IMG/VR virus record: IMGVR_UViG_3300042453_003699
Span: 1 to 64,000 of that record
Source of the DNA: a virus
DNA length: 64,000 nucleotides
Strand: one strand, 5' to 3'
Shown piece after piece: positions 1,432-55,638 of this stretch; positions within the stretch are counted from its first letter, which is position 1, and each line of letters starts with the position of its first letter. Both the position numbers and the translations under genes were made by a program. The notes beneath the pieces were generated by a model. That model was not told where the DNA came from. It saw nothing but the letters and a program-made list of their open reading frames with translations, and ran no database searches.

Positions 1432-1833
1432 TTACTTAGTCTTATTGAGTAGCTTTTGAGCAAGAGCGGGGTGGTTGGAGTAGAATGACTCATTCCTCAG
1501 AGCGGATGCCACACAACCACAGCTTTTTGATTTACCTGATAGTAGCTTGCTCGAACGGATCTTTCTTTCGTTTCCGCAGAAGCATCTACAAAGCCATAGG
1601 TAATTACCGTAGTCGTCCTTGCCGAACGGCTCAATAGCTTCAAGAAACCCAAACTTTGTTCCTACTTTGATCTTTGATCTTTCCTGAAGACGCTTGATTT
1701 TCAGACAACCGCAAGACTTCGCCTTGTAGAATTTGTCTTTGGTTGTTTTGATGGTTTGACCACACTCACACCGACAAACGATGGAATCGCCGTGCTTTTT
1801 GACTATGGTTAGTAGACCGTTTTTGGTTTTCAT
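1432..1833 (-). CDS. Protein with two CxC/SCGC zinc-ribbon repeats
   Basis: 133 aa. Two similar units are visible, each with a CxCxCG-type element followed about 20 residues later by KSCGC: CRCECG...KSCGC and CRCFCG...KSCGC. Such four-cysteine units are common in phage proteins as small zinc-bound DNA-binding modules, often near mobile nucleases, but no nuclease motif is present here. The start codon overlaps the stop of the upstream oxygenase gene (ATGA), so the two are probably co-translated. Function beyond nucleic-acid binding is not recognised. Confidence 0.7.
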   Translation of the reverse strand: MKTKNGLLTIVKKHGDSIVCRCECGQTIKTTKDKFYKAKSCGCLKIKRLQERSKIKVGTKFGFLEAIEPFGKDDYGNYLWLCRCFCGNERKIRSSKLLSGKSKSCGCVASALRNESFYSNHPALAQKLLNKTK

Positions 1834-2438
1834 GTAGGGTCTGACCTACGACCTCCAAATCGACACAGCGCAGAATACCGAACGGAAGAAACCTCCGTTA
1901 CCGCGTGCTTAAAAAACGGAGGGTCGTTGAGAATCACAACCAGTCTTCCGTAAACAGGCTCAACCTCTCCACAGAGCACCTCGTTTCTTGTGAACCGAAG
2001 TAAGCCCCCATGTTCCGGCTTCCATTCTTTGTTCAGGCATAGAGCCAGATTCAATTCCGCAGGGGCGGACTGTAAATCATTATGTGGAGCCAATCCCTGA
2101 CCCTTGTAGTATTTGACTAGGGACGGTTCCATCAGAAAAGGTCCACGCTTAGAGGTGTAGTGCCTTAAAAGAGGGGACTCATGTACCATCCCCCAGAATT
2201 GGTACACCTCCCTTGGGGCTTCCTTTATGGTTTCAAAAGCGATGCAGTTGGGTACGGATTCTGCGTTACCGTCAGGTCCGTAAAGACCGTCCGTGTCAGC
2301 TCGGGCAGAATCGAAGTCCAATTCGGTCATCAACCTGTACAGATTGTCAACCTGAGCAAACCCATTCAGATCGACATAATCAAACCCTTTTCCATACAGT
2401 TGCTCAAGATCAACTGGTCGAATCGTTTCGATGTCCAT
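1830..2438 (-). CDS. 2-oxoglutarate/Fe(II)-dependent oxygenase (prolyl-hydroxylase-like)
   Basis: About 202 aa. The iron-binding HxD is in APHNDLQ, the distal histidine in FFKHAVTEV, and the 2-oxoglutarate-binding arginine in SVRYSAL, the usual order for the P4H-type double-stranded beta-helix. A longer reading begins at 2474, but the ATG at 2438 is preceded by AAAAGGA at good spacing and is preferred. Substrate unknown: these enzymes hydroxylate proteins, nucleobases or small molecules. It is the most divergent of three such enzymes in the window (others at 48384 and 49695). Confidence 0.8.
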   Translation of the reverse strand: MDIETIRPVDLEQLYGKGFDYVDLNGFAQVDNLYRLMTELDFDSARADTDGLYGPDGNAESVPNCIAFETIKEAPREVYQFWGMVHESPLLRHYTSKRGPFLMEPSLVKYYKGQGLAPHNDLQSAPAELNLALCLNKEWKPEHGGLLRFTRNEVLCGEVEPVYGRLVVILNDPPFFKHAVTEVSSVRYSALCRFGGRRSDPT

Positions 2439-2485
2439 AATGTCCTTTTCTATGTAGTTTTGGAGTCCCCTCACCGTTTGTACTC

Positions 2486-17582: not shown

Positions 17583-18422
17583 ATGTCTATATTAGTATCA
17601 GGGGGCGCTTTGAAAAGATTCACAGGGGCGGTAAAGCCGTTTTTCAATCTGGATGGTCTGAATCTCACTATTAGATATGGCGAGGTTGTTTCTCTTGCGG
17701 AGTGGCAGACGAGTCACCCGAGCTTTCGTTTTGCCTTAGAGAATGGGTGGGTAGTCTCCGTGGATCGCAAAACTATCGTCTTCAACGCCGAAACCCCAAA
17801 GAAGCCAAGTAACGCTATGCGTTCTAAAAGAAAGAAATCCGCCGAAATCGTACAGGAGTTGCCAGAAAGCGGTTTAGATCCTGTGATTCTTCAAACAATC
17901 TTGGATAAGCAGGAGGGGTTCGTGCGACAAGCCCAAAAAACCTTTGAACGCCTAACGGCTCAGAAAAAAGAACCAGAGCAACCGACGGTAACGCCTGAGA
18001 TGTTTGCCTCGATGCTAGAGAACCAACGCAAGATGATGGAGATGCTCGAAAAAGAGAAACAGCAACCAGTGCCCCAAGCCCCCGCCTTGGATCAAACCGC
18101 AGTGCTGAATGCTCTCAAGCTCCTGACTAATGAGGTCAAGCGTCTTCAAGAATCAAAACCATCAGAAGCGTCTGTGAATACCGACCAGATTTTAGAGGGC
18201 GTAAAACAAGTAATGTCCCAGTTCAGTCCGTCCTCGGGTTCCTATAATGGAACTAAGAAAGACCCAAGTGGCTTTCAGATACGGGATGATTTTGAAGAGA
18301 AGTTCATTCCAAAAGTAGAAGACTTAGAAGTGAAGAACTCAAATATCGTAGCCCAAGAAAAGGACTCAGGAAGTGTTGAGGAGGCTCTCGCGGCTCTCCG
18401 AAAACTCAAGGAGAAGAAATAA
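17583..18422 (+). CDS. Coiled-coil protein paired with actin-like gene
   Basis: 279 aa, not recognised. A 75-residue N-terminal domain (FNLDGLNLTIRYGEVVSLAEWQ...FALENGWVVS) is followed by a basic patch (MRSKRKKS) and long Gln/Glu/Lys-rich helices likely to form coiled coils (FASMLENQRKMMEMLEKEKQQ). Its stop overlaps the next ATG (TAATG), so it is co-translated with the actin-like protein and may be its adaptor or cargo-binding partner. Confidence 0.65.
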   Translation: MSILVSGGALKRFTGAVKPFFNLDGLNLTIRYGEVVSLAEWQTSHPSFRFALENGWVVSVDRKTIVFNAETPKKPSNAMRSKRKKSAEIVQELPESGLDPVILQTILDKQEGFVRQAQKTFERLTAQKKEPEQPTVTPEMFASMLENQRKMMEMLEKEKQQPVPQAPALDQTAVLNALKLLTNEVKRLQESKPSEASVNTDQILEGVKQVMSQFSPSSGSYNGTKKDPSGFQIRDDFEEKFIPKVEDLEVKNSNIVAQEKDSGSVEEALAALRKLKEKK

Positions 18423-19468
18423 TGGAACAGTTGCAAAACCAATCAGTCCCCGCAAGCCCTGTCGCTAAGGATAAGAAGTATCTTGTTCGCGGGTTGGATA
18501 TTGGGACAGGTACAATCATCGCATCCTATCTTGATGAAGCCTCCAATACGGTAAAAAGCAAGCGGGTTCGCGACGCATTCGTATCTCTTGCGGTCGAACA
18601 GAAGCAGATGCTCAAGCTATCAAACATTTCGTACATTGAGGAAGGTGATCGAGTCATCATTGTCAGCGACGATGCCGCTAACATCGCCAACATCTTCAAT
18701 CAGCCTCTTCGCCGTCCTCTCAGTCGAGGAACGATCTCCCCTTCAGAGATCGAAGCACAGAAGGTTATCAAGCACCTCTTTCGTGAAGTTTTGGGGGAGG
18801 CGCAGGTGCCCGGATCGGTATGCGTGTACTCTATCCCCGCAAATCCGCTCGACGCAGATCAAGATGTAACTTTTCACGAAATGATTATGGGGCAAATGCT
18901 TGAAAGCCTCGGTTGGAAAGCAGTCGCCGCGAATGAAGCACAAGCCATCGTTTATTCCGAGTGCGCCGACACCATGTTCAGCGGATTTGCCATGAGCTTC
19001 GGAGCAGGGATGGTCAACTGCGCTCTTTCATACAAGTCTATCCCTCTTATCACTATGTCGGTTGCCCGCTCTGGGGACTATGTGGATGAGCAATCCGCCA
19101 AGGCTACTGGGCTGTCTCCTGCAAAAACTTGCGCTATCAAAGAGAAGGGCGTGGATCTTCTCGCCCCGAAGGGTCGCGAGCAAGAAGCAATAGCAGTCTA
19201 TTACAAGGCGCTCATCAAGTATGCTCTTACGAACTTTATCGAAAAGATTAAGTCCCAGAATGTCATGGCGCAGATCGACCTGCCTGATTCCATTCCGGTG
19301 GTAGTCGGCGGAGGCACATCGCTCCCCATCAACTTCCTTGCTGTGGTCAAGGAAGAGGTGAACCGCCTAAAGGGATTTCCGTTTTCTGTGACTGACATTC
19401 GCCATGCAAAAGACCCGCTGTATGCAGTTTCTAGGGGGCTTCTCATCATGGCTCAGAACCAAGACTAA
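18422..19468 (+). CDS. Actin-like ATPase (ParM/MreB/FtsA superfamily)
   Basis: 348 aa. Actin-fold nucleotide motifs occur in order: phosphate-1 GLDIGTGTIIASYLD (Asp26), a connect-type segment around NEAQAIVYSE, phosphate-2 FAMSFGAGMVNCALS, and adenosine VVVGGGTSLP. The length is normal for bacterial actins. It probably binds ATP and may polymerise. Known phage or plasmid actins segregate DNA or position it in the cell. Position next to virion genes is atypical, and the phosphate-2 loop lacks the usual DxG aspartate, so it may bind nucleotide without rapid hydrolysis. Confidence 0.75.
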   Translation: MEQLQNQSVPASPVAKDKKYLVRGLDIGTGTIIASYLDEASNTVKSKRVRDAFVSLAVEQKQMLKLSNISYIEEGDRVIIVSDDAANIANIFNQPLRRPLSRGTISPSEIEAQKVIKHLFREVLGEAQVPGSVCVYSIPANPLDADQDVTFHEMIMGQMLESLGWKAVAANEAQAIVYSECADTMFSGFAMSFGAGMVNCALSYKSIPLITMSVARSGDYVDEQSAKATGLSPAKTCAIKEKGVDLLAPKGREQEAIAVYYKALIKYALTNFIEKIKSQNVMAQIDLPDSIPVVVGGGTSLPINFLAVVKEEVNRLKGFPFSVTDIRHAKDPLYAVSRGLLIMAQNQD

Positions 19469-41484: not shown

Positions 41485-42558
41485 ATGAATTTCTTAAAAG
41501 AGCTGTTGTTTCTCCAAAGCTGGTACAATCGTCTTGCCGCGCCCCCTGCGAAGAATTATCCGCCGGGCTGTGTCGCGACGGCTATTCGTACCTGTAAAGA
41601 GCTTGGTCGTGACGATCTAGCTGAACAGGTTGAGAAGGTCTGGGGCGAATGTTTCCAGAAGCACTCGACCGAAATTTTCAAATACCGTGATCGTGGCGAC
41701 GGTTATATGTTCGCTACAGCTACCAACATTGCGGCTCGTTCTTTGAACAAGAATCTATTTGGTGGTCCTACTCCTTCCGCTGAAAAGGGTTCGTTCGCAA
41801 AAAACTTTGGGTGGTGGTTGGACAAGCAACTAGGCGATAAGAAAGCCCCTGCTCTGCCTCCGATGCCAGACCCGTTGGATTCTGCTCCTGCTATTGCATT
41901 GCCGAAAGCCAACGAAGATATTGACGACTGGGCGGCACAAGCTAAGAAAACTCAAGAGAGCTTGCAAGCCCTTCAAGCCGCATTTGCAGACACAGAAGAC
42001 TTTATTCAGGTTCTTGAAAAAGAGATCGGTGAGATTGGGCGTAAGATCGCCGACTACGGACCCGGAGGCTCTAAAGAAGTCACCAAGTCTGGGAAGCCTC
42101 ACAAGTTGTCCTTGCGCGTTCCTAAGTGGCAAATAGAACTTGAAATTTACAAAGCTAAACTCGCTGAAACTAAGAGCGGAGTTTCCTCGGCTAAAACTAA
42201 GATGGAATCCGCTGAAGCGGCATATCGTAAGAGTCCAGCCGTTACCGTAGCTTACGAGAAGGAAGCTCAACAATCTCTTGAAGGTGTTCTTGAAGTCATC
42301 ATGGACATGAAAGACCTCAAAAAGCAGAAAGAGATGCTCGCTAAGTTCAATGAAATGGTTAAGAACATGGAGAAGGAAGACAAGAAAGTCGCAAGTATGG
42401 AGCGTTCTGCGTCGTTCTGGGACACCATCTTCAACGCGTTTGATTCCGTTGTTTCGTTCTTCTCTTCTGCGTGGAAGGGTCTGGTCAAGTGGACCAAATC
42501 TCTGTTCGGCGCAGTGGACAAATTTGATAAAGTTGCAACCGAACTAGGACGCTACTAG
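41485..42558 (+). CDS. Abundant coiled-coil protein with amphipathic C-terminus
   Basis: 357 aa, not recognised. The N-terminus (LKELLFLQSWYNRLAAPPA) is followed by a small helical domain, then a long coiled-coil region (about 150-310), then a C-terminal amphipathic stretch (FWDTIFNAFDSVVSFFSSAW). CGT-biased arginine codons and flanking terminators suggest a separate, high-level transcript. It might be an internal head or tail-tube cargo, or a membrane-acting protein. Confidence 0.65.
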   Translation: MNFLKELLFLQSWYNRLAAPPAKNYPPGCVATAIRTCKELGRDDLAEQVEKVWGECFQKHSTEIFKYRDRGDGYMFATATNIAARSLNKNLFGGPTPSAEKGSFAKNFGWWLDKQLGDKKAPALPPMPDPLDSAPAIALPKANEDIDDWAAQAKKTQESLQALQAAFADTEDFIQVLEKEIGEIGRKIADYGPGGSKEVTKSGKPHKLSLRVPKWQIELEIYKAKLAETKSGVSSAKTKMESAEAAYRKSPAVTVAYEKEAQQSLEGVLEVIMDMKDLKKQKEMLAKFNEMVKNMEKEDKKVASMERSASFWDTIFNAFDSVVSFFSSAWKGLVKWTKSLFGAVDKFDKVATELGRY

Positions 42559-42631: not shown

Positions 42632-42958
42632 ATGAAGGATGTATTGGCGGAAATTCAGGTTTTGGAACGAAAGATCGCGGAAGCCTACAAGAAGAAATAT
42701 GACACGCTCGCAAAGCGTATCAAAGCGATCAAGAAGCCAAATTTCATTTGGAATTTCAAGAAACCGCTTCCCAACGGAAGGACTTTCATCATTTCAAAAG
42801 GGGTCGTAAAAGAAAAAGGGAAGTACCGATTAGAGGGGGAGTGGTGGAATACTCCGTGGTTTGATTCACTAGAAAAACTTGTCAAAACTATTGATTGGGT
42901 CGATTTTGAGAGGCGAAGTAAGTACGAAGAATTCGTGAAGGGGAATAGTCCGTTCTAA
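42632..42958 (+). CDS. Hypothetical basic protein
   Basis: 108 aa. A charged helix (IQVLERKIAEAYKKKYD) precedes a beta segment (RTFIISKGVVKEKGKYRLEGEWW). Not recognised. AGAGAGG lies 11 bases before the ATG. Confidence 0.6.
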   Translation: MKDVLAEIQVLERKIAEAYKKKYDTLAKRIKAIKKPNFIWNFKKPLPNGRTFIISKGVVKEKGKYRLEGEWWNTPWFDSLEKLVKTIDWVDFERRSKYEEFVKGNSPF

Positions 42959-43016: not shown

Positions 43017-43760
43017 ATGCAAAAACTCATTCAGTGGTATCAGCGTCAGGTCAAGATCGACGCAACTCTCTCCAAAGAACAACAGACAAAACAAATATAC
43101 ACACAGCTAAAAGCTCTCCGTGATGCGAAATGTAGGGGCGCAAAAAGCCTAAATGACATACTGCGTTACGAATATGCCTACATTTGTGCGGCACTCAATC
43201 TGCGTAACCAAGTGTGGGAATACAACTTCATGGATTTCAGTCGGAGGTTGGGTGAATTTTGGGAGAGTTTCTGCAAAGCCGCCTTCCGAAACGCCAACCT
43301 CAGAATGTATTCTCCGCCGAAATTTGATTCAGTCCGTCAAGAGCTTAAACTGCCCAAGAAGCTAATGCCTCTGATTGGCGAAGTGAATCTCAGGCAGGAT
43401 GTGTCTTTTTACTTCAACCGTAAGCTCCATGTGATTGATCTCAAAGGCAGTTTGAACTCGAACGAGAAGGGTCATATCGAGAGGTTACTTCGAGTAGGTG
43501 TCGTCTATGAACTGTGGAAACCAAGGTCTAAACGGCTGGTCCTCGTCCGCGAGCCTGATGAGAACAATTCTTATTTAGATAAGCTGACCGCTTGTTGGGA
43601 AGTGTATGCGGGCGACCAAGCCTACGACAAGATCCGAGACATCACGGGAGTTGACTTGAAGGCGTGGGTTGACCGGAATGTGGACTTCAAAAAACACCTC
43701 GACCGCCGAATTTTGTCCGTTGTCCGTGACCAAAATCTTGAAAAATATCTATCATGGTAA
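43017..43760 (+). CDS. Candidate PD-(D/E)XK-fold nuclease
   Basis: 247 aa. A possible active site is QDVSFYFNRKLHVIDLKGS at about residues 125-144: an Asp, then a hydrophobic strand ending D-x-K, the restriction-endonuclease-like arrangement. Helical flanks contain basic residues (EYAYICAALNLRNQVW). No family-level match is claimed. It has the box-regulated leaderless-type start typical of the accessory genes here. Confidence 0.5.
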   Translation: MQKLIQWYQRQVKIDATLSKEQQTKQIYTQLKALRDAKCRGAKSLNDILRYEYAYICAALNLRNQVWEYNFMDFSRRLGEFWESFCKAAFRNANLRMYSPPKFDSVRQELKLPKKLMPLIGEVNLRQDVSFYFNRKLHVIDLKGSLNSNEKGHIERLLRVGVVYELWKPRSKRLVLVREPDENNSYLDKLTACWEVYAGDQAYDKIRDITGVDLKAWVDRNVDFKKHLDRRILSVVRDQNLEKYLSW

Positions 43761-48383: not shown

Positions 48384-49079
48384 ATGGATTTGCGCTCCTT
48401 GTTTCAGAAAGGGTATTCGGTAACAAAGATCGAAAAGTCGCTCGCTGACAAGGTTTTGGAGGCGATGCCACGGCAGACTTTCAAGTACCCCGACAAGATT
48501 ACCCAGAAAGAGCACCCTATGTATCATTCCGACACGGGTCTCTTTTATTGCGAATGCGTCACCCCTTTCACCTCAGATCAACCGCCCTTGATGGGTAGGG
48601 GATTTCATGAGGGGGATCTCGATTTTTTCACGGAGTTCTGGGGGCTGATTTCCTATTCGGAAACCTATAAGTGGTATCGGGAATCGTTTGGACCTGTAAC
48701 GAGGTTCTCAAAGCAGATGCACGATTTCAAAAAGGGGGAGTCTCTTGGGTTTCATTTTGACTACAAGGACGCAACGCCCTTCATCAACATACTGTATGTC
48801 GGGGACGATGACTTCACCGAAGGGGACGGAGGCTATTTAGAAGTTGGTAAGTGTCGGGTTACGGATGGTTTTGAAATCATCAGGGACTCGATTGAAGTCA
48901 CGGGTCGGATTTTCCCGAATCACGGAACCCTTGTGACCCTGAACAATATGACTCCGTACTTCGTTCACTCCGTGGCTCGGCTGATGTCCTCAAAAAAGAG
49001 ATACAGCTTCATCTGCCAGTTCGGTCACAAGGAAAACGAACTCTATTCCTTGATCTCTAAGGGTTGGAACATCCGCTAA
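48384..49079 (+). CDS. 2-oxoglutarate/Fe(II)-dependent oxygenase
   Basis: 231 aa. Iron ligands HxD in GFHFDYKDAT and His in YFVHSVARL, with the cosubstrate Arg near SSKKRYSF; a GDGGYLEVG turn and NHGTLVTLNN strand fit the P4H fold. Starts LRSLFQKGYSVTKIEKS, closely matching LRSFFKKGYCVAKVEKS in the 49695 enzyme, so the two are paralogues. Substrate unknown. Leaderless-type start. Confidence 0.8.
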   Translation: MDLRSLFQKGYSVTKIEKSLADKVLEAMPRQTFKYPDKITQKEHPMYHSDTGLFYCECVTPFTSDQPPLMGRGFHEGDLDFFTEFWGLISYSETYKWYRESFGPVTRFSKQMHDFKKGESLGFHFDYKDATPFINILYVGDDDFTEGDGGYLEVGKCRVTDGFEIIRDSIEVTGRIFPNHGTLVTLNNMTPYFVHSVARLMSSKKRYSFICQFGHKENELYSLISKGWNIR

Positions 49080-49093
49080 TACTGCCCTACTGT

Positions 49094-49708
49094 ATGAAAA
49101 AGATTTATCGTAGGCTAGTTCTTAGTCTCATGCAGTCTAGGCTGTATTCTTGGGCGTTACTCCATGTGATCCCTTACATTCGATTTACGACTTACTATAC
49201 CTCACTGCGTGGGTGGAAATACCAAAGGGGCTATCGACTTCTTCAAGCAGGAGACATCCTTCTAACGATTGATCGGAAAAAGCTGACGACGGTTCTGATA
49301 CCGGGCGAGTTCAGTCACGCCGCCTTGTGTGTAGACAAAGGGTCTGAATTTGAGATCGCTGAGATGACCCACTCCCACTTCACCCGAAGCACTTTTTTTG
49401 ACATCTGCAAGGAGTCAGACCGAGTTGTGATTCTCAGGTGTAAGACTTTCGATTACCCCTACATCCAAAAAGTAGTCGAGAAATGCCTGAGCTTTTCTGA
49501 AGCGAGTTACGACATCGGATTCGAGTTGGGTATCCAATCTCTCTATTGCTCGGAACTCGTGTACCAATCGGATTTTGAACGAAGGATTGGAGCTGACCTT
49601 ACTGACTTGGCAGGGTTAGGGAGACCCTACATTTCCCCGACAGGGCTTCGGCAAGCTGATAATGTCGAAGTGGTCTGGGACAGTGACTTGGAAGTTAAGG
49701 CTCAATGA
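49094..49708 (+). CDS. Permuted papain-like (YiiX/NlpC-P60) hydrolase
   Basis: 204 aa. Begins with a hydrophobic or amphipathic helix (VLSLMQSRLYSWALLHVIPY). The catalytic layout of the permuted superfamily follows: QAGDILLT, His75 in FSHAALCV, and Cys near 152 in YCSELVYQS. Relatives cleave peptide or acyl-amide bonds; membrane-associated lipid substrates are known. It is flanked by the two paralogous oxygenase genes. The ATG at 49094 follows the oxygenase stop; an upstream TTG reading is less likely. Confidence 0.75.
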   Translation: MKKIYRRLVLSLMQSRLYSWALLHVIPYIRFTTYYTSLRGWKYQRGYRLLQAGDILLTIDRKKLTTVLIPGEFSHAALCVDKGSEFEIAEMTHSHFTRSTFFDICKESDRVVILRCKTFDYPYIQKVVEKCLSFSEASYDIGFELGIQSLYCSELVYQSDFERRIGADLTDLAGLGRPYISPTGLRQADNVEVVWDSDLEVKAQ

Positions 49709-50354
49709 CATTTCGGATGTCTTTGAGTCTCGCTTTGGTGAGGGTGTGCTCGACATAACCCAAGTGAAAAAGGAGGGTATTCCTTTCCTTCTCCGCCTTC
49801 ACGGGGTCAACCCTGTGTTGGTTCGTGGGGTCTAGGTTGTTGATGACTACGAGGGTTCCGTGATTCGGAAGTATCCGATCGAATAGGGCGACTGAATCCC
49901 CGATAGCCCGACCCACTCCAAGCCAACCCCCATCTTCGTATGTAAACTCATCGGGCGTTAGATACAGACAACAGGTGATGGCGGTAGCGTCCAAGGAGTC
50001 GGTATGCCAAACCATACCGTCCCCGTTTCGGAATCGGTTAATCATAGGGCAACCCTGAGAAAACTCACCTAGAGCCTCTCTGATCGGCTTGAAGAAGGAG
50101 TGTACCTTGGCTTGGTTGTAGAAGTCGGTAAGCTCCTGCGGGGCATCCTTGTTCTCTGAGGGGATAATTTTACTGCTTTCCCATTTGGATATGAGGGGTG
50201 CGCGGAAGTTTTCACTCGCGTAAACCCCATCCCCTTCCACAAAAGGTTGCCTCTGGATCACCCCTAACAGGTAGTCGCTCATGGATTTTTCAACCTTAGC
50301 GACGCAGTAACCTTTTTTGAAAAATGATCTAAGGTTCAGATTTCCTTCAATCAT
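49695..50354 (-). CDS. 2-oxoglutarate/Fe(II)-dependent oxygenase, paralogue of 48384
   Basis: 219 aa. HxD in VWHTDSLDAT, distal His in NQHRVDPV, Arg in KERNTLLFHLGY, plus YEDGGWLGVG and NHGTLVVINN. Convergent with the hydrolase gene, overlapping by 14 bases, and divergent from the 2H phosphoesterase with only 22 bp between starts. Substrate unknown. Confidence 0.8.
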   Translation of the reverse strand: MIEGNLNLRSFFKKGYCVAKVEKSMSDYLLGVIQRQPFVEGDGVYASENFRAPLISKWESSKIIPSENKDAPQELTDFYNQAKVHSFFKPIREALGEFSQGCPMINRFRNGDGMVWHTDSLDATAITCCLYLTPDEFTYEDGGWLGVGRAIGDSVALFDRILPNHGTLVVINNLDPTNQHRVDPVKAEKERNTLLFHLGYVEHTLTKARLKDIRNVIEP

Positions 50355-50376: not shown

Positions 50377-51339
50377 ATGATAGGCAGAAAGGCACGCACG
50401 CTATCAAATACTTTGATCGCCTTCGATGCGGATTCCACCCAGTTCGAGAAGCTGAGTGATCGCGTCATTGCGTACCTTCGTGAAAACCAGATTATGGCTT
50501 TGCCCACGGACCGCCCGTTCCATGTATCCGTATCGTATATCTCGAATGCCCAAGAAGAGGACGATTTGATTGGACTCATGGAAGAGGCTGAGGGTGCGGG
50601 GAGGTTCCACAGTAAGACGCTTGTTCCGTTAAAAGGGAAAAATGGTAGTACCTACATAGCGTTGCAGGTGGAAGCCTCCCCAAAGTTTTTCAATTTCAAG
50701 AGGAAGGTGGACGACCACACCAAGTCTCGGGGCTTTGCTCGTGGGTTCAAGACCCACATAAGTCTTGCGAAATTTCCATCTTGGCAAATGCGACAGGGGT
50801 TGATGGAGGAGCTAAACAAAAAGTTTAATCCAGTATTTTCCATCAACTCTGACAGGGTACTTTTGTACGACCAGTCCCATAAGATTTACAGGTCAATGGA
50901 GGCTAACTTGGAACTTGCAGATCATCTCAAAGCTCACAACCGAATGAGCTACCGTTCGATGGAAACCATGATGCGGAAGATTTTGGACCGCAACACGAAA
51001 GGGTTCTTCAAAGACAATCACTGGGCTCCCGTCCACAAGATTCAAAACGAGCTTTCGGCTGAAATGATCGACATGGACCTGATGCGTTCCAAATACTTCC
51101 ACAACAAAGACTCCACCTCATCGGAACCTGACGGTAAAGAATGGGTTTTTGAGGTGTACTACGGGGATGAAGGTGGTTGGACCCTGCGCGTAGTCGCGAG
51201 TTTCGGTCCAAGCCCGACCAGCGACCCTATGTCGGTTTACGATTTGGTCTACACTCTGACATGGAGCAAAAAAATCAAAAAGGAAGCCTCTCTTTCTTCC
51301 AAGCTCCGTAAGATCGCGTCTTCCTTAAAAATGGGCTGA
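50377..51339 (+). CDS. 2H phosphoesterase family protein (possible anti-CBASS)
   Basis: 320 aa. The two HxS motifs of 2H phosphoesterases are present: FHVSVSYI (His49) and THISLAKF (His127), 78 residues apart. Family members open 2',3'- or cyclic-oligonucleotide bonds; phage Acb1 uses this fold to destroy CBASS signal molecules. The remaining half is unassigned, with a basic C-terminal helix (SSKLRKIASSLKMG). Specificity cannot be read from sequence. The start at 50377 is chosen over an upstream reading that enters the divergent gene. Confidence 0.7.
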   Translation: MIGRKARTLSNTLIAFDADSTQFEKLSDRVIAYLRENQIMALPTDRPFHVSVSYISNAQEEDDLIGLMEEAEGAGRFHSKTLVPLKGKNGSTYIALQVEASPKFFNFKRKVDDHTKSRGFARGFKTHISLAKFPSWQMRQGLMEELNKKFNPVFSINSDRVLLYDQSHKIYRSMEANLELADHLKAHNRMSYRSMETMMRKILDRNTKGFFKDNHWAPVHKIQNELSAEMIDMDLMRSKYFHNKDSTSSEPDGKEWVFEVYYGDEGGWTLRVVASFGPSPTSDPMSVYDLVYTLTWSKKIKKEASLSSKLRKIASSLKMG

Positions 51340-51845: not shown

Positions 51846-52985
51846 ATGGGAAAGGTAGCCGATCGGCTCCGACAGATAGCCAAAATAGCCGTAGCCAAGT
51901 ATGTCACTCGTTCGGGGGACTTACTGGTAGCCTACCCTAATAGAAGCGGTGCGACCGTTCTAGTCAAGAAATCAGGGACCAAATATGAGATCGTCTCCCT
52001 GAAGCAAAATAGGATTTGGGGGAGCTACGCAATCTCTTACGCTCAGGCAAAGGGCGTTGCGGGTATTGTACCCAACATCAGGCTTCGCGATGTCACCAAC
52101 GAAGCCGCTTTTCTTGAGGTTCTGGAAAACCCCAGTCGTGTTCTTAAAGGCGACTTGATGCAGGACATAGCACAGCTATCAAAAATACTTGGCAAGCTCA
52201 AGTATTACGAGGTGGTCGATGAGGCGAAAGCCCTCAAGCTCCTCACGCTCAAGGAAAGCATTCCCGTCGCCTATCTCAAGAGATACCTTCCAGAGCTTCC
52301 TACGGATCAGGAGGGGTCGCATCAGAAGATTGGACCGTTTGATGTCTCCTTTGACCACGAAAATGAGGGCGAGAGGCAAGCGATCGAAAACTTGATTGAA
52401 CGCGCTGTCCAGACGCTAGGGTCGGCGGGCTTCGGGGATTACCTGTACGGCAAGATATTTGTTGTAAGCAAACTCAAGGGGCGCACCGTAGCTGATTACC
52501 ACCCCTCAGACGATTCTATCCGACTCAGCCACAAGGCTAAGGGCAAAGAGGATTTGAGAACCTTCATTCACGAAATTGGGCACCGCATACTTAACAAGGG
52601 TGGCGCGGATTATCCCAAGATCAAAGCTAAGTTCCGTGAAGCAGTGCAGGGTTTTTCTCTTGAGGTCAAACCGGGTACGATCCTGAAAGACAAGAAAGAC
52701 GGAAAGACCTACAAATATGTGGGGCAATCTTTTCAAGCTCGTTCTACTCCATACAAGATTAAGCAGGTTTTGACTGAGAACGGCGAGACCATCGAACGAG
52801 GTGACTATAGGGTCAGCGCATTCTATTTCACGAACTTCGAGGGAGACTTTAAGATCAACGGCGAGTGGTTTCCCACTGCCTATTCCAAAACGAACCAAGA
52901 GGAATGGTTCTGTGAGATTCTGTCTTTCGCACTCACGAGGGGAGATAAGATTTTCCTAGATTTTATCAAGGAAGTCAGGAAGTGA
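51846..52985 (+). CDS. HEXXH zinc metallopeptidase
   Basis: 379 aa. Catalytic FIHEIGHRI near residue 242; a later NQEEWFCEILSFAL may supply the third Glu ligand of a gluzincin. The N-terminus (VADRLRQIAKIAVAKYV) resembles the N-terminal peptides of three other nearby proteins. The region 1-150 is unassigned. Might process virion proteins or attack host proteins after injection. Confidence 0.75.
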   Translation: MGKVADRLRQIAKIAVAKYVTRSGDLLVAYPNRSGATVLVKKSGTKYEIVSLKQNRIWGSYAISYAQAKGVAGIVPNIRLRDVTNEAAFLEVLENPSRVLKGDLMQDIAQLSKILGKLKYYEVVDEAKALKLLTLKESIPVAYLKRYLPELPTDQEGSHQKIGPFDVSFDHENEGERQAIENLIERAVQTLGSAGFGDYLYGKIFVVSKLKGRTVADYHPSDDSIRLSHKAKGKEDLRTFIHEIGHRILNKGGADYPKIKAKFREAVQGFSLEVKPGTILKDKKDGKTYKYVGQSFQARSTPYKIKQVLTENGETIERGDYRVSAFYFTNFEGDFKINGEWFPTAYSKTNQEEWFCEILSFALTRGDKIFLDFIKEVRK

Positions 52986-54298: not shown

Positions 54299-54613
54299 AT
54301 GAGCATCAGTTACAGGGTCGCGAAAAGATTCGAGTTACGGCGGGAGAAGCTAATAGCGGATTTCTTGGCGGGTATCGGGACTACCTCCGAGAGTGAGGCA
54401 GCGTTTTTCCTATCAAACGAGTTTGGGATCAATCCTTTTGATGCTCGTGATTTGATTGAAGAGTACCGCGAGTTGGAAAGTGCGGGGCACCCCTCCGAAA
54501 AAGATGTTCTCCCCCTCATTTCAAAATACGCTACCGCTGAAAAAGTAGCCTGTGGGTGCGGATGTGGTTGCGATTGCTACAATAAATGTGACTGCGGGTG
54601 CGGGTGTCACTGA
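54299..54613 (+). CDS. Protein with metallothionein-like cysteine tail
   Basis: 104 aa. The N-terminus has the shared peptide (SYRVAKRFELRREK), then two helical segments, and the last 20 residues are CGCGCGCDCYNKCDCGCGCH-like with nine cysteines, a plausible multi-metal cluster site. CAGGAGAA ribosome site; stop overlaps the alarmone-synthetase ATG (TGATG), so the two are made together. Confidence 0.65.
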   Translation: MSISYRVAKRFELRREKLIADFLAGIGTTSESEAAFFLSNEFGINPFDARDLIEEYRELESAGHPSEKDVLPLISKYATAEKVACGCGCGCDCYNKCDCGCGCH

Positions 54614-55638
54614 TGAAAAAGATAGCGCGTATTCACAAAATTGCTTGGTCGATCGCCCTTCGTTTTGCAAAGGTGAAAGACAAGTTCGAGATCACCGAGA
54701 GCGACCTTGTTAAAAACCCAAACCCCAAAGGGGTCAAGGAATGGGTTACCCAAGAATACGCGGATCAATTCCTATCAAAAGCAAAGAGTCCTAAGAGTCA
54801 TGGGGAAAAGCTCAAGCAGAACCCCCCTCAGCCATCGGACCCAGAGATGAGGTTTACACCTCCGGCGGGTAAAGAACGAGCTGAGTTTAACCGTGAGCAA
54901 CTGAAGAAGAGAGACCCTAGCTCCAAGAACAAGCACAAGTTCCGTGGTCTAAGTCCTGAAGAAACAAAACGAGCCGAAGAGCTTTCAAAAAAGAAGGGTT
55001 CCGAGTGTACCTTTGACGACATTGCTGAGTTTATAGGATTTTTTGAAAAGTCCTACGAAGAGTCCAAGAATTGGGCAAAAACCTTCCTCAAGGGTGGTGC
55101 AAAAACTTACAGCGGTCGTTGGAAGGACGAGCAGTCTCTTTTAGAAAAAATGAACGGTAAGTTTGCACACCGAACTCTTGAGACTGTCGGAGATGTAGTT
55201 GCAAATAGGTGCGTGTGCTCTTCGAGAGCCGATCAAGCGAAACTGGTCGATTACATCTACGAAAATTGCGTCATCCTTGAGCACGACAACATTGTCGATA
55301 ACCCTCGCGGGGACGGGTACAGCGCCCACCATTTTACTTTGGAAGCGCCTGACGGAAGGCTCATTGAGCTTCAAGTGAAAACTGAGAACCAACAGACCTT
55401 CTCGGGTTGGAGCCATGACGCGATTTACAAGAACAAAGAGGTCAGTGAAAACGGCAAGCCTAAGTACCCAGAGGTGGCGAAGTATGCCCTAGATTTGGGC
55501 AACTACATCAATGAAATTGACAGTGGTAAAGAACCATCTACCCCGCCCCCTCAACCCCCTGCTATACTGTTAAAGATCCTAAAGGGTCAAAATAAGAAAC
55601 CGTTTGATCTCAAGGAAATTAAGAGGGTTGGGGCATGA
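54613..55638 (+). CDS. RelA/SpoT-like alarmone synthetase
   Basis: 341 aa. Synthetase motifs are visible in order: SGRWKDEQSLLEKM (the R-x-K...S...K nucleotide-binding element), catalytic Asp in VGDVVANRCV, GDGYSAHHFTLE, and LIELQVKT with the second acidic residue, then WSHDAIYK. No HD hydrolase or TGS/ACT regulatory domains, as in small alarmone synthetases or toxSAS enzymes. It could make (p)ppGpp-like nucleotides or pyrophosphorylate another target. About 130 residues of charged N-terminal region precede it, beginning with a basic helix. Confidence 0.75.
   Translation: MKKIARIHKIAWSIALRFAKVKDKFEITESDLVKNPNPKGVKEWVTQEYADQFLSKAKSPKSHGEKLKQNPPQPSDPEMRFTPPAGKERAEFNREQLKKRDPSSKNKHKFRGLSPEETKRAEELSKKKGSECTFDDIAEFIGFFEKSYEESKNWAKTFLKGGAKTYSGRWKDEQSLLEKMNGKFAHRTLETVGDVVANRCVCSSRADQAKLVDYIYENCVILEHDNIVDNPRGDGYSAHHFTLEAPDGRLIELQVKTENQQTFSGWSHDAIYKNKEVSENGKPKYPEVAKYALDLGNYINEIDSGKEPSTPPPQPPAILLKILKGQNKKPFDLKEIKRVGA

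What the first reader, a model, noticed from the sequence alone, without database searches (positions are those of the whole stretch)
50377..51339. 2H phosphoesterase, possible anti-CBASS or anti-Thoeris enzyme with an extra domain
Two HxS motifs spaced 78 residues apart match the 2H fold used by Acb1 to cleave immune cyclic nucleotides. It is longer than typical Acb1, so the C-terminal half could be a new targeting or sensing domain. Its position in an accessory block supports counter-defence.
Basis: partly seen in the sequence, partly recalled or inferred. Interest (0 to 1): 0.68.

Follow-up and report, generated by a model that had tools for sequence, protein, structure and literature searches.

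The report
Orphan 2H phosphoesterase in huge-phage accessory island
A fragment of a very large bacterial virus carries a probable small-RNA or signal-nucleotide cutting enzyme with an extra, unrecognised tail region, sitting among swappable genes that look like tools for disarming the host; it is plausible counter-defence, but its target is unproven and it is not a recognisable member of the known anti-CBASS enzyme family.

Summary
The 320-residue ORF at 50377-51339 has HVS (His49) and HIS (His127) motifs 78 residues apart. It matches Pfam 2_5_RNA_ligase2 weakly: E=0.0044 against the whole library, 5e-5 genome-wide, below the curated cut-off. Both histidines fall on the model's catalytic columns by estimated position. 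A divergent 2H phosphoesterase is likely.

It is not a recognisable Acb1. The Acb1 model gives no match, while T4 Acb1 scores 202.7 bits and a 2H domain in a related huge phage passes that model at 29 bits.

No relative of the protein or of its 140-residue C-terminal extension turned up in viral contigs, phages, plasmids, bacterial genomes, PHROGs, NCBIfam or PDB.

The record is a 78-kb fragment of a huge-phage lineage. A sister phage is collinear up to 47.7 kb and then diverges completely, so the gene lies in a variable accessory island. Nearby separate genes encode a RelA/SpoT synthetase, a HEIGH metallopeptidase and a C92 papain-like peptidase. Such domain types are known from injected 'polyvalent' phage proteins, where 2H domains also occur, including in this lineage.

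Best guess: an accessory effector that cleaves immune oligonucleotides or RNA. The substrate is undecided. The anti-Thoeris idea has no support.

The parts
50377..51339 (+). CDS of the putative 2H phosphoesterase, 320 aa (alternative TTG start at 50317)
50404..50901 (+). 2H domain, about residues 10-175
   Evidence: PF13563 match residues 44-157; predicted strand/helix order of low-confidence models
50521..50529 (+). first HxS motif, His49-Val-Ser
50755..50763 (+). second HxS motif, His127-Ile-Ser
50911..51282 (+). C-terminal region, residues 179-302, no recognised family
   Evidence: no relatives found
51289..51330 (+). predicted C-terminal amphipathic helix (SLSSKLRKIASSLK), weak resemblance to terminal helices of other proteins of this phage group
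46480..47664 (-). two genes that are the last ones shared with sister phage G002; the variable island begins after them
49094..49708 (+). Peptidase_C92 (YaeF/YiiX permuted papain-like) protein, neighbour in the island
   Evidence: E=1.4e-14
49695..50354 (-). 2OG-Fe(II) oxygenase, divergent neighbour; paralogues at 48384-49079 and 1830-2474
51846..52985 (+). putative zinc metallopeptidase (HEIGH motif), neighbour in the island
   Evidence: motif; weak Peptidase_Mx1 match over another stretch
54598..55638 (+). RelA/SpoT-type alarmone synthetase, neighbour in the island
   Evidence: PF04607 E=9.2e-14

Best explanation
The gene encodes a divergent stand-alone 2H-superfamily phosphoesterase, used as an accessory effector in host conflict. 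His49/Ser51 and His127/Ser129 would form the catalytic tetrad and, without metal, cleave phosphodiester bonds next to a ribose 2'-OH (or open 2',3'-cyclic phosphates) in a short oligonucleotide, most likely a nucleotide immune messenger or damaged/host RNA. The C-terminal extension would give substrate or partner specificity, and its terminal helix may be a localisation or packaging tag. Shown: the motifs, the weak family match, the accessory location, the effector-like neighbours. Inferred: fold, catalysis, substrate, timing and localisation.
For: Two HxS motifs with 2H spacing; PF13563 match. By my arithmetic on the reported match ranges, His49 falls at profile position ~27, the same as the first His of a kin-phage 2H domain, and His127 at ~111 versus ~110. 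Sister phage G002 is collinear to 47.7 kb, then carries entirely different genes. Neighbours are RelA/SpoT, C92 papain-like and HEIGH peptidase genes. In the same sheath lineage, 2H domains sit inside multidomain proteins with InPase, topoisomerase IB, ART-PolyVal, GNAT or metallopeptidase domains, the 'polyvalent' proteins for which signal-nucleotide degradation or RNase action was proposed (PMC5512222). No RNA ligase or tRNA gene was found, which weighs mildly against RNA repair.
Against: The family match is below Pfam's curated cut-off. Profile comparison with kin 2H domains gave no support. Single-sequence structure models are poor (pLDDT 37 and 55) and fold searches gave no 2H match. No homologue exists to show conservation of the catalytic residues. 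No direct evidence bears on substrate.
Confidence: 0.5

Rival explanations
1. It is an anti-CBASS enzyme that works like Acb1, cutting cyclic di- or trinucleotides, though not a sequence member of Acb1.
For: Acb1 is a 2H enzyme with the same type of catalytic tetrad (PMC9117128); the gene lies in a variable accessory island; a kin phage (G007) carries a 2H domain that passes the Acb1 model at 29.0 bits.
Against: No Acb1 HMM match to this protein; HxS rather than HxT motifs; 78- versus 69-residue spacing; the conserved Acb1 ligand residues could not be mapped; the 320-aa length means the Acb1 C-terminal lid is not recognisable.
Confidence: 0.2
2. It is an RNA-processing enzyme: an RNA 2',3'-cyclic phosphodiesterase for tRNA/RNA repair, or an RNase resembling Usb1.
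For: PF13563 is the best match; HxS tetrads are typical of Usb1-like 2H enzymes (own knowledge); the polyvalent-protein study proposes an RNase role for phage 2H domains (PMC5512222).
Against: No RNA ligase in the 78-kb record and no tRNA gene in the window, though the record is a fragment; no match to HVSL/Usb1 or LigT_PEase models.
Confidence: 0.25
3. It is not an active 2H enzyme: the two HxS motifs are coincidental in an unrelated orphan phage protein.
For: Sub-threshold Pfam score; no profile-profile support; motif pairs occur by chance in about 2 of 1,482 proteins.
Against: E=5.4e-5 genome-wide with both histidines on the expected columns; true 2H enzymes such as T4 Acb1 score even lower on this model.
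Confidence: 0.15

Closest known systems
2_5_RNA_ligase2 / 2H phosphoesterase superfamily (Pfam PF13563)
   Different: score 17.5-19.1 bits, below the 27-bit cut-off; a C-terminal extension of about 140 residues without relatives
Acb1 (T4 gp57B, Pfam PF23474)
   Same: 2H superfamily enzyme of a phage; proposed counter-defence role
   Different: no sequence match; HxS/HxS instead of HxT/HxT; spacing 78 instead of 69; 320 aa instead of 152
2H domains of phage polyvalent proteins (Iyer et al. 2017, PMC5512222)
   Same: same superfamily; same company of effector domains (RelA/SpoT, metallopeptidase, papain-like); such proteins exist in the same sheath lineage
   Different: here the enzymes are separate genes and this one is a single-enzyme protein; the sequence is not related to the kin 2H domains by BLAST or hhalign
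T4 internal proteins (IP, Alt) with capsid-targeting sequences
   Same: idea of a short terminal helix on dispensable effector proteins
   Different: T4 tag is N-terminal and cleaved (own knowledge); here the helix is C-terminal, weakly supported, and virion presence is untested

Membership tests
2H phosphoesterase superfamily | two HxS/T motifs in the right order and spacing | tested here: met
   H49VS and H127IS, 78 apart
2H phosphoesterase superfamily | match to a family profile over the curated cut-off | tested here: not met
   PF13563 17.5 bits (19.1 in six-frame search) versus 27 needed; E=0.0044 / 5.4e-5. Divergent true members also fail: T4 Acb1 scores 13 bits
2H phosphoesterase superfamily | bilobal 2H fold with both motifs facing each other | tested here: inconclusive
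   models at pLDDT 37 and 55 from a single sequence; fold searches without a 2H match
Acb1 (anti-CBASS protein 1) | match to Pfam Acb1 PF23474 | tested here: not met
   no match at E<=10; positive controls T4 57B 202.7 bits, kin G007 29.0 bits
Acb1 (anti-CBASS protein 1) | HxT/HxT tetrad plus aromatic ligand residues and C-terminal lid | tested here: inconclusive
   motifs are HxS/HxS; aromatic positions cannot be aligned (features from PMC9117128)
Acb1 (anti-CBASS protein 1) | cleavage of cyclic di/trinucleotides | not testable with these tools
   needs biochemistry
LigT-like and Usb1/HVSL RNA phosphodiesterases | match to PF02834 or PF09749 | tested here: not met
   no match
Polyvalent proteins | two or more unrelated effector domains in one polypeptide | tested here: inconclusive
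   one candidate enzyme domain plus a region of unknown nature
Polyvalent proteins | packaged in the virion and injected | not testable with these tools
   needs virion proteomics

The most novel reading that the evidence does not exclude
The island is a set of virion-packaged effectors, a 'disassembled polyvalent protein': separate enzymes (2H phosphoesterase, alarmone synthetase, peptidases) each carrying a short terminal amphipathic helix that directs it into the capsid for injection, with the 2H enzyme clearing an immune nucleotide signal before phage genes are expressed.
Probability: 0.12. Interest if true: 0.65.

Novelty: new member of a known kind. Interest (0 to 1): 0.36.

Why it matters
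If active, it adds a 2H enzyme outside every current family model to the pool of phage enzymes that may destroy nucleotide immune signals. Its unrecognised C-terminal region could reveal a new specificity or delivery module. The island also gives a concrete, testable list of candidate injected effectors in uncultivated huge phages.

Tried and rejected
Homologue searches with the whole protein, the 2H part and the C-terminal part found nothing significant in viral contigs, phages, plasmids or GTDB genomes, nor in 43 sheath-kin records, LR745208 and Tunturi_5 or sister records. A degenerate-motif search of viral contigs with distant 2H domains found nothing. The kin 2H alignment was too divergent to search with, and hhalign of it with this protein gave 0.3% probability. 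Similarity of the C-terminal region to the G002 protein at 42542 looked suggestive by eye but had Z=0.4 against shuffles. Single-sequence AlphaFold models were too poor to identify a fold. An apparent second 2H gene in G004 beside a RelA/SpoT gene was rejected as probable antisense noise. A search for close kin by the gene at 43017 found only G002 again.

Full report
OBSERVATION. The ORF at 50377-51339 on the + strand encodes 320 residues. Such a pair arises in 0.3% of shuffles of this protein and in about 2 of 1,482 shuffled proteins of related phages per pass, so the motifs alone are suggestive but not decisive. Pfam gives one relevant match, 2_5_RNA_ligase2 (PF13563), residues 44-157, 17.5 bits, E=0.0044 over the whole library and below the curated cut-off. 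A six-frame search of the 78-kb record gives 19.1 bits and E=5.4e-5, with no other hit in the record. Taking the reported match ranges as ungapped near the ends, His49 lies at profile position about 27 and His127 at about 111. The histidines of a confident kin-phage 2H domain lie at about 27 and 110 (my arithmetic). For scale, T4 Acb1, an experimentally proven 2H enzyme, scores only 13 bits (E=0.11) on the same model. I conclude that a divergent 2H domain is likely (about 85%), not proven.

WHAT IT IS NOT. The Pfam Acb1 model finds nothing here at E<=10, although it finds T4 57B (202.7 bits) and a 2H domain of a related huge phage (29.0 bits). LigT_PEase and HVSL/Usb1 models also find nothing. 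Acb1 is defined by an HxT/HxT tetrad (H44/H113 in T4), aromatic base-stacking residues and a C-terminal lid (PMC9117128). This protein has HxS/HxS, a longer spacing and no alignable ligand residues. 'Works like Acb1' stays possible; 'is an Acb1' is not supported.

AN ORPHAN WITH AN EXTENSION. Searches with the whole protein or its halves found no relative in viral contigs, GenBank phages, plasmids, GTDB genomes, PHROGs, NCBIfam, PDB sequences or 43 records sharing the tail sheath. Without homologues the structure models were poor (pLDDT 37 for the whole protein, 55 for the first 182 residues) and fold searches were uninformative. The order of predicted elements (helix, strand with HxS, helix, strand, strand, helix, strand with HxS, helix, strands) is compatible with a 2H fold but cannot establish it. 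Residues 179-302 match nothing. Residues 305-318 form a predicted amphipathic helix.

WHERE IT SITS. The window is part of a 78-kb virus record. Its tail sheath relates it to 60-odd viral records, some over 400 kb, and to Tunturiibacter phage Tunturi_5 and a 485-kb uncultured phage, so it is a fragment of a huge phage. A sister record, G002, is collinear from about 13 to 47.7 kb with most proteins about 50-80% identical. It then carries a completely different gene set. Neighbours there are a RelA/SpoT synthetase (PF04607, E=9e-14), a C92 papain-like protein (E=1e-14) and two 2OG-Fe(II) oxygenases, plus a protein with a HEIGH metallopeptidase motif.

MEANING OF THE COMPANY. Kin phages carry 2H domains inside long multidomain proteins together with topoisomerase IB, InPase, ART-PolyVal, GNAT or metallopeptidase domains. 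These fit the published class of polyvalent proteins thought to be injected with phage DNA. For their 2H domains the authors proposed degradation of immune nucleotides or RNase action, because they never observed them beside RNA ligases (PMC5512222). RelA/SpoT and peptidase domains belong to the same repertoire. In the present phage comparable domain types occur as separate genes. No RNA ligase lies in the record and no tRNA gene in the window, though the record is incomplete.

POSSIBLE TAG. The last residues (SLSSKLRKIASSLKMG) resemble helices of G002 island proteins (SKLLSELRKIEASLK, SVLAEIRKIEARLE, KKLLAEIKHLEHKVA) and of the window protein at 42632. A matrix built from those four ranks this site fourth among non-seed sites, with 4 observed at or above its score against 0.7 expected in shuffles. 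This is suggestive only. A second motif, RVAxRY/F, is clearly over-represented in some kin phages (12 versus 3.2 and 11 versus 1.9 expected) and often lies at N-termini or between polyvalent domains. Its role is unknown.

VERDICT. Likely a divergent, stand-alone phage 2H phosphoesterase in an effector-rich accessory island. The most likely role is cleavage of an immune signalling oligonucleotide or of RNA. The exact substrate, the fold of the C-terminal region and any packaging are untested. Anti-Thoeris activity has no support.

Noticed in passing
window 54598-55638: Phage-encoded stand-alone RelA/SpoT-type alarmone synthetase (PF04607 E=9e-14) with an N-terminal helix-like stretch MKKIARIHKIAWSIALRF; only 2 of 45 kin records have a RelA/SpoT match.
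   Followed up: partly
kin records G007, LR745208 (W02), window 54299 and 57370: Recurrent RVAxRY/F/H/W motif at protein N-termini or domain junctions, above shuffle expectation in two huge phages (12 vs 3.2; 11 vs 1.9) and in the window's record (4 vs 0.6), not enriched in G004. Possible packaging, cleavage or localisation signal.
   Followed up: partly
L103:2221-5190, L105:3835-7305, L104:906-2405, L106:2355-11630: Polyvalent proteins in kin huge phages: 2H + topoisomerase IB + InPase; 2H + topoisomerase IB; 2H (passing the Acb1 model) + metallopeptidase-like HELGH region; a 3,091-aa protein with ART-PolyVal, GNAT and 2H.
   Followed up: partly
window 1830-2474, 48384-49079, 49695-50354: Three paralogous 2OG-Fe(II) oxygenase genes in one phage fragment, two of them close upstream of the finding.
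   Followed up: no
L148:92-911 (phage T4): In T4 the acb1 gene (57B) lies directly beside ipI, an internal virion protein gene; a possible parallel to 2H genes among injected effectors.
   Followed up: no
window 18422-19468: One protein is 96% identical to its counterpart in sister phage G002 while neighbours are mostly 50-80% identical: strong constraint or recent exchange.
   Followed up: no
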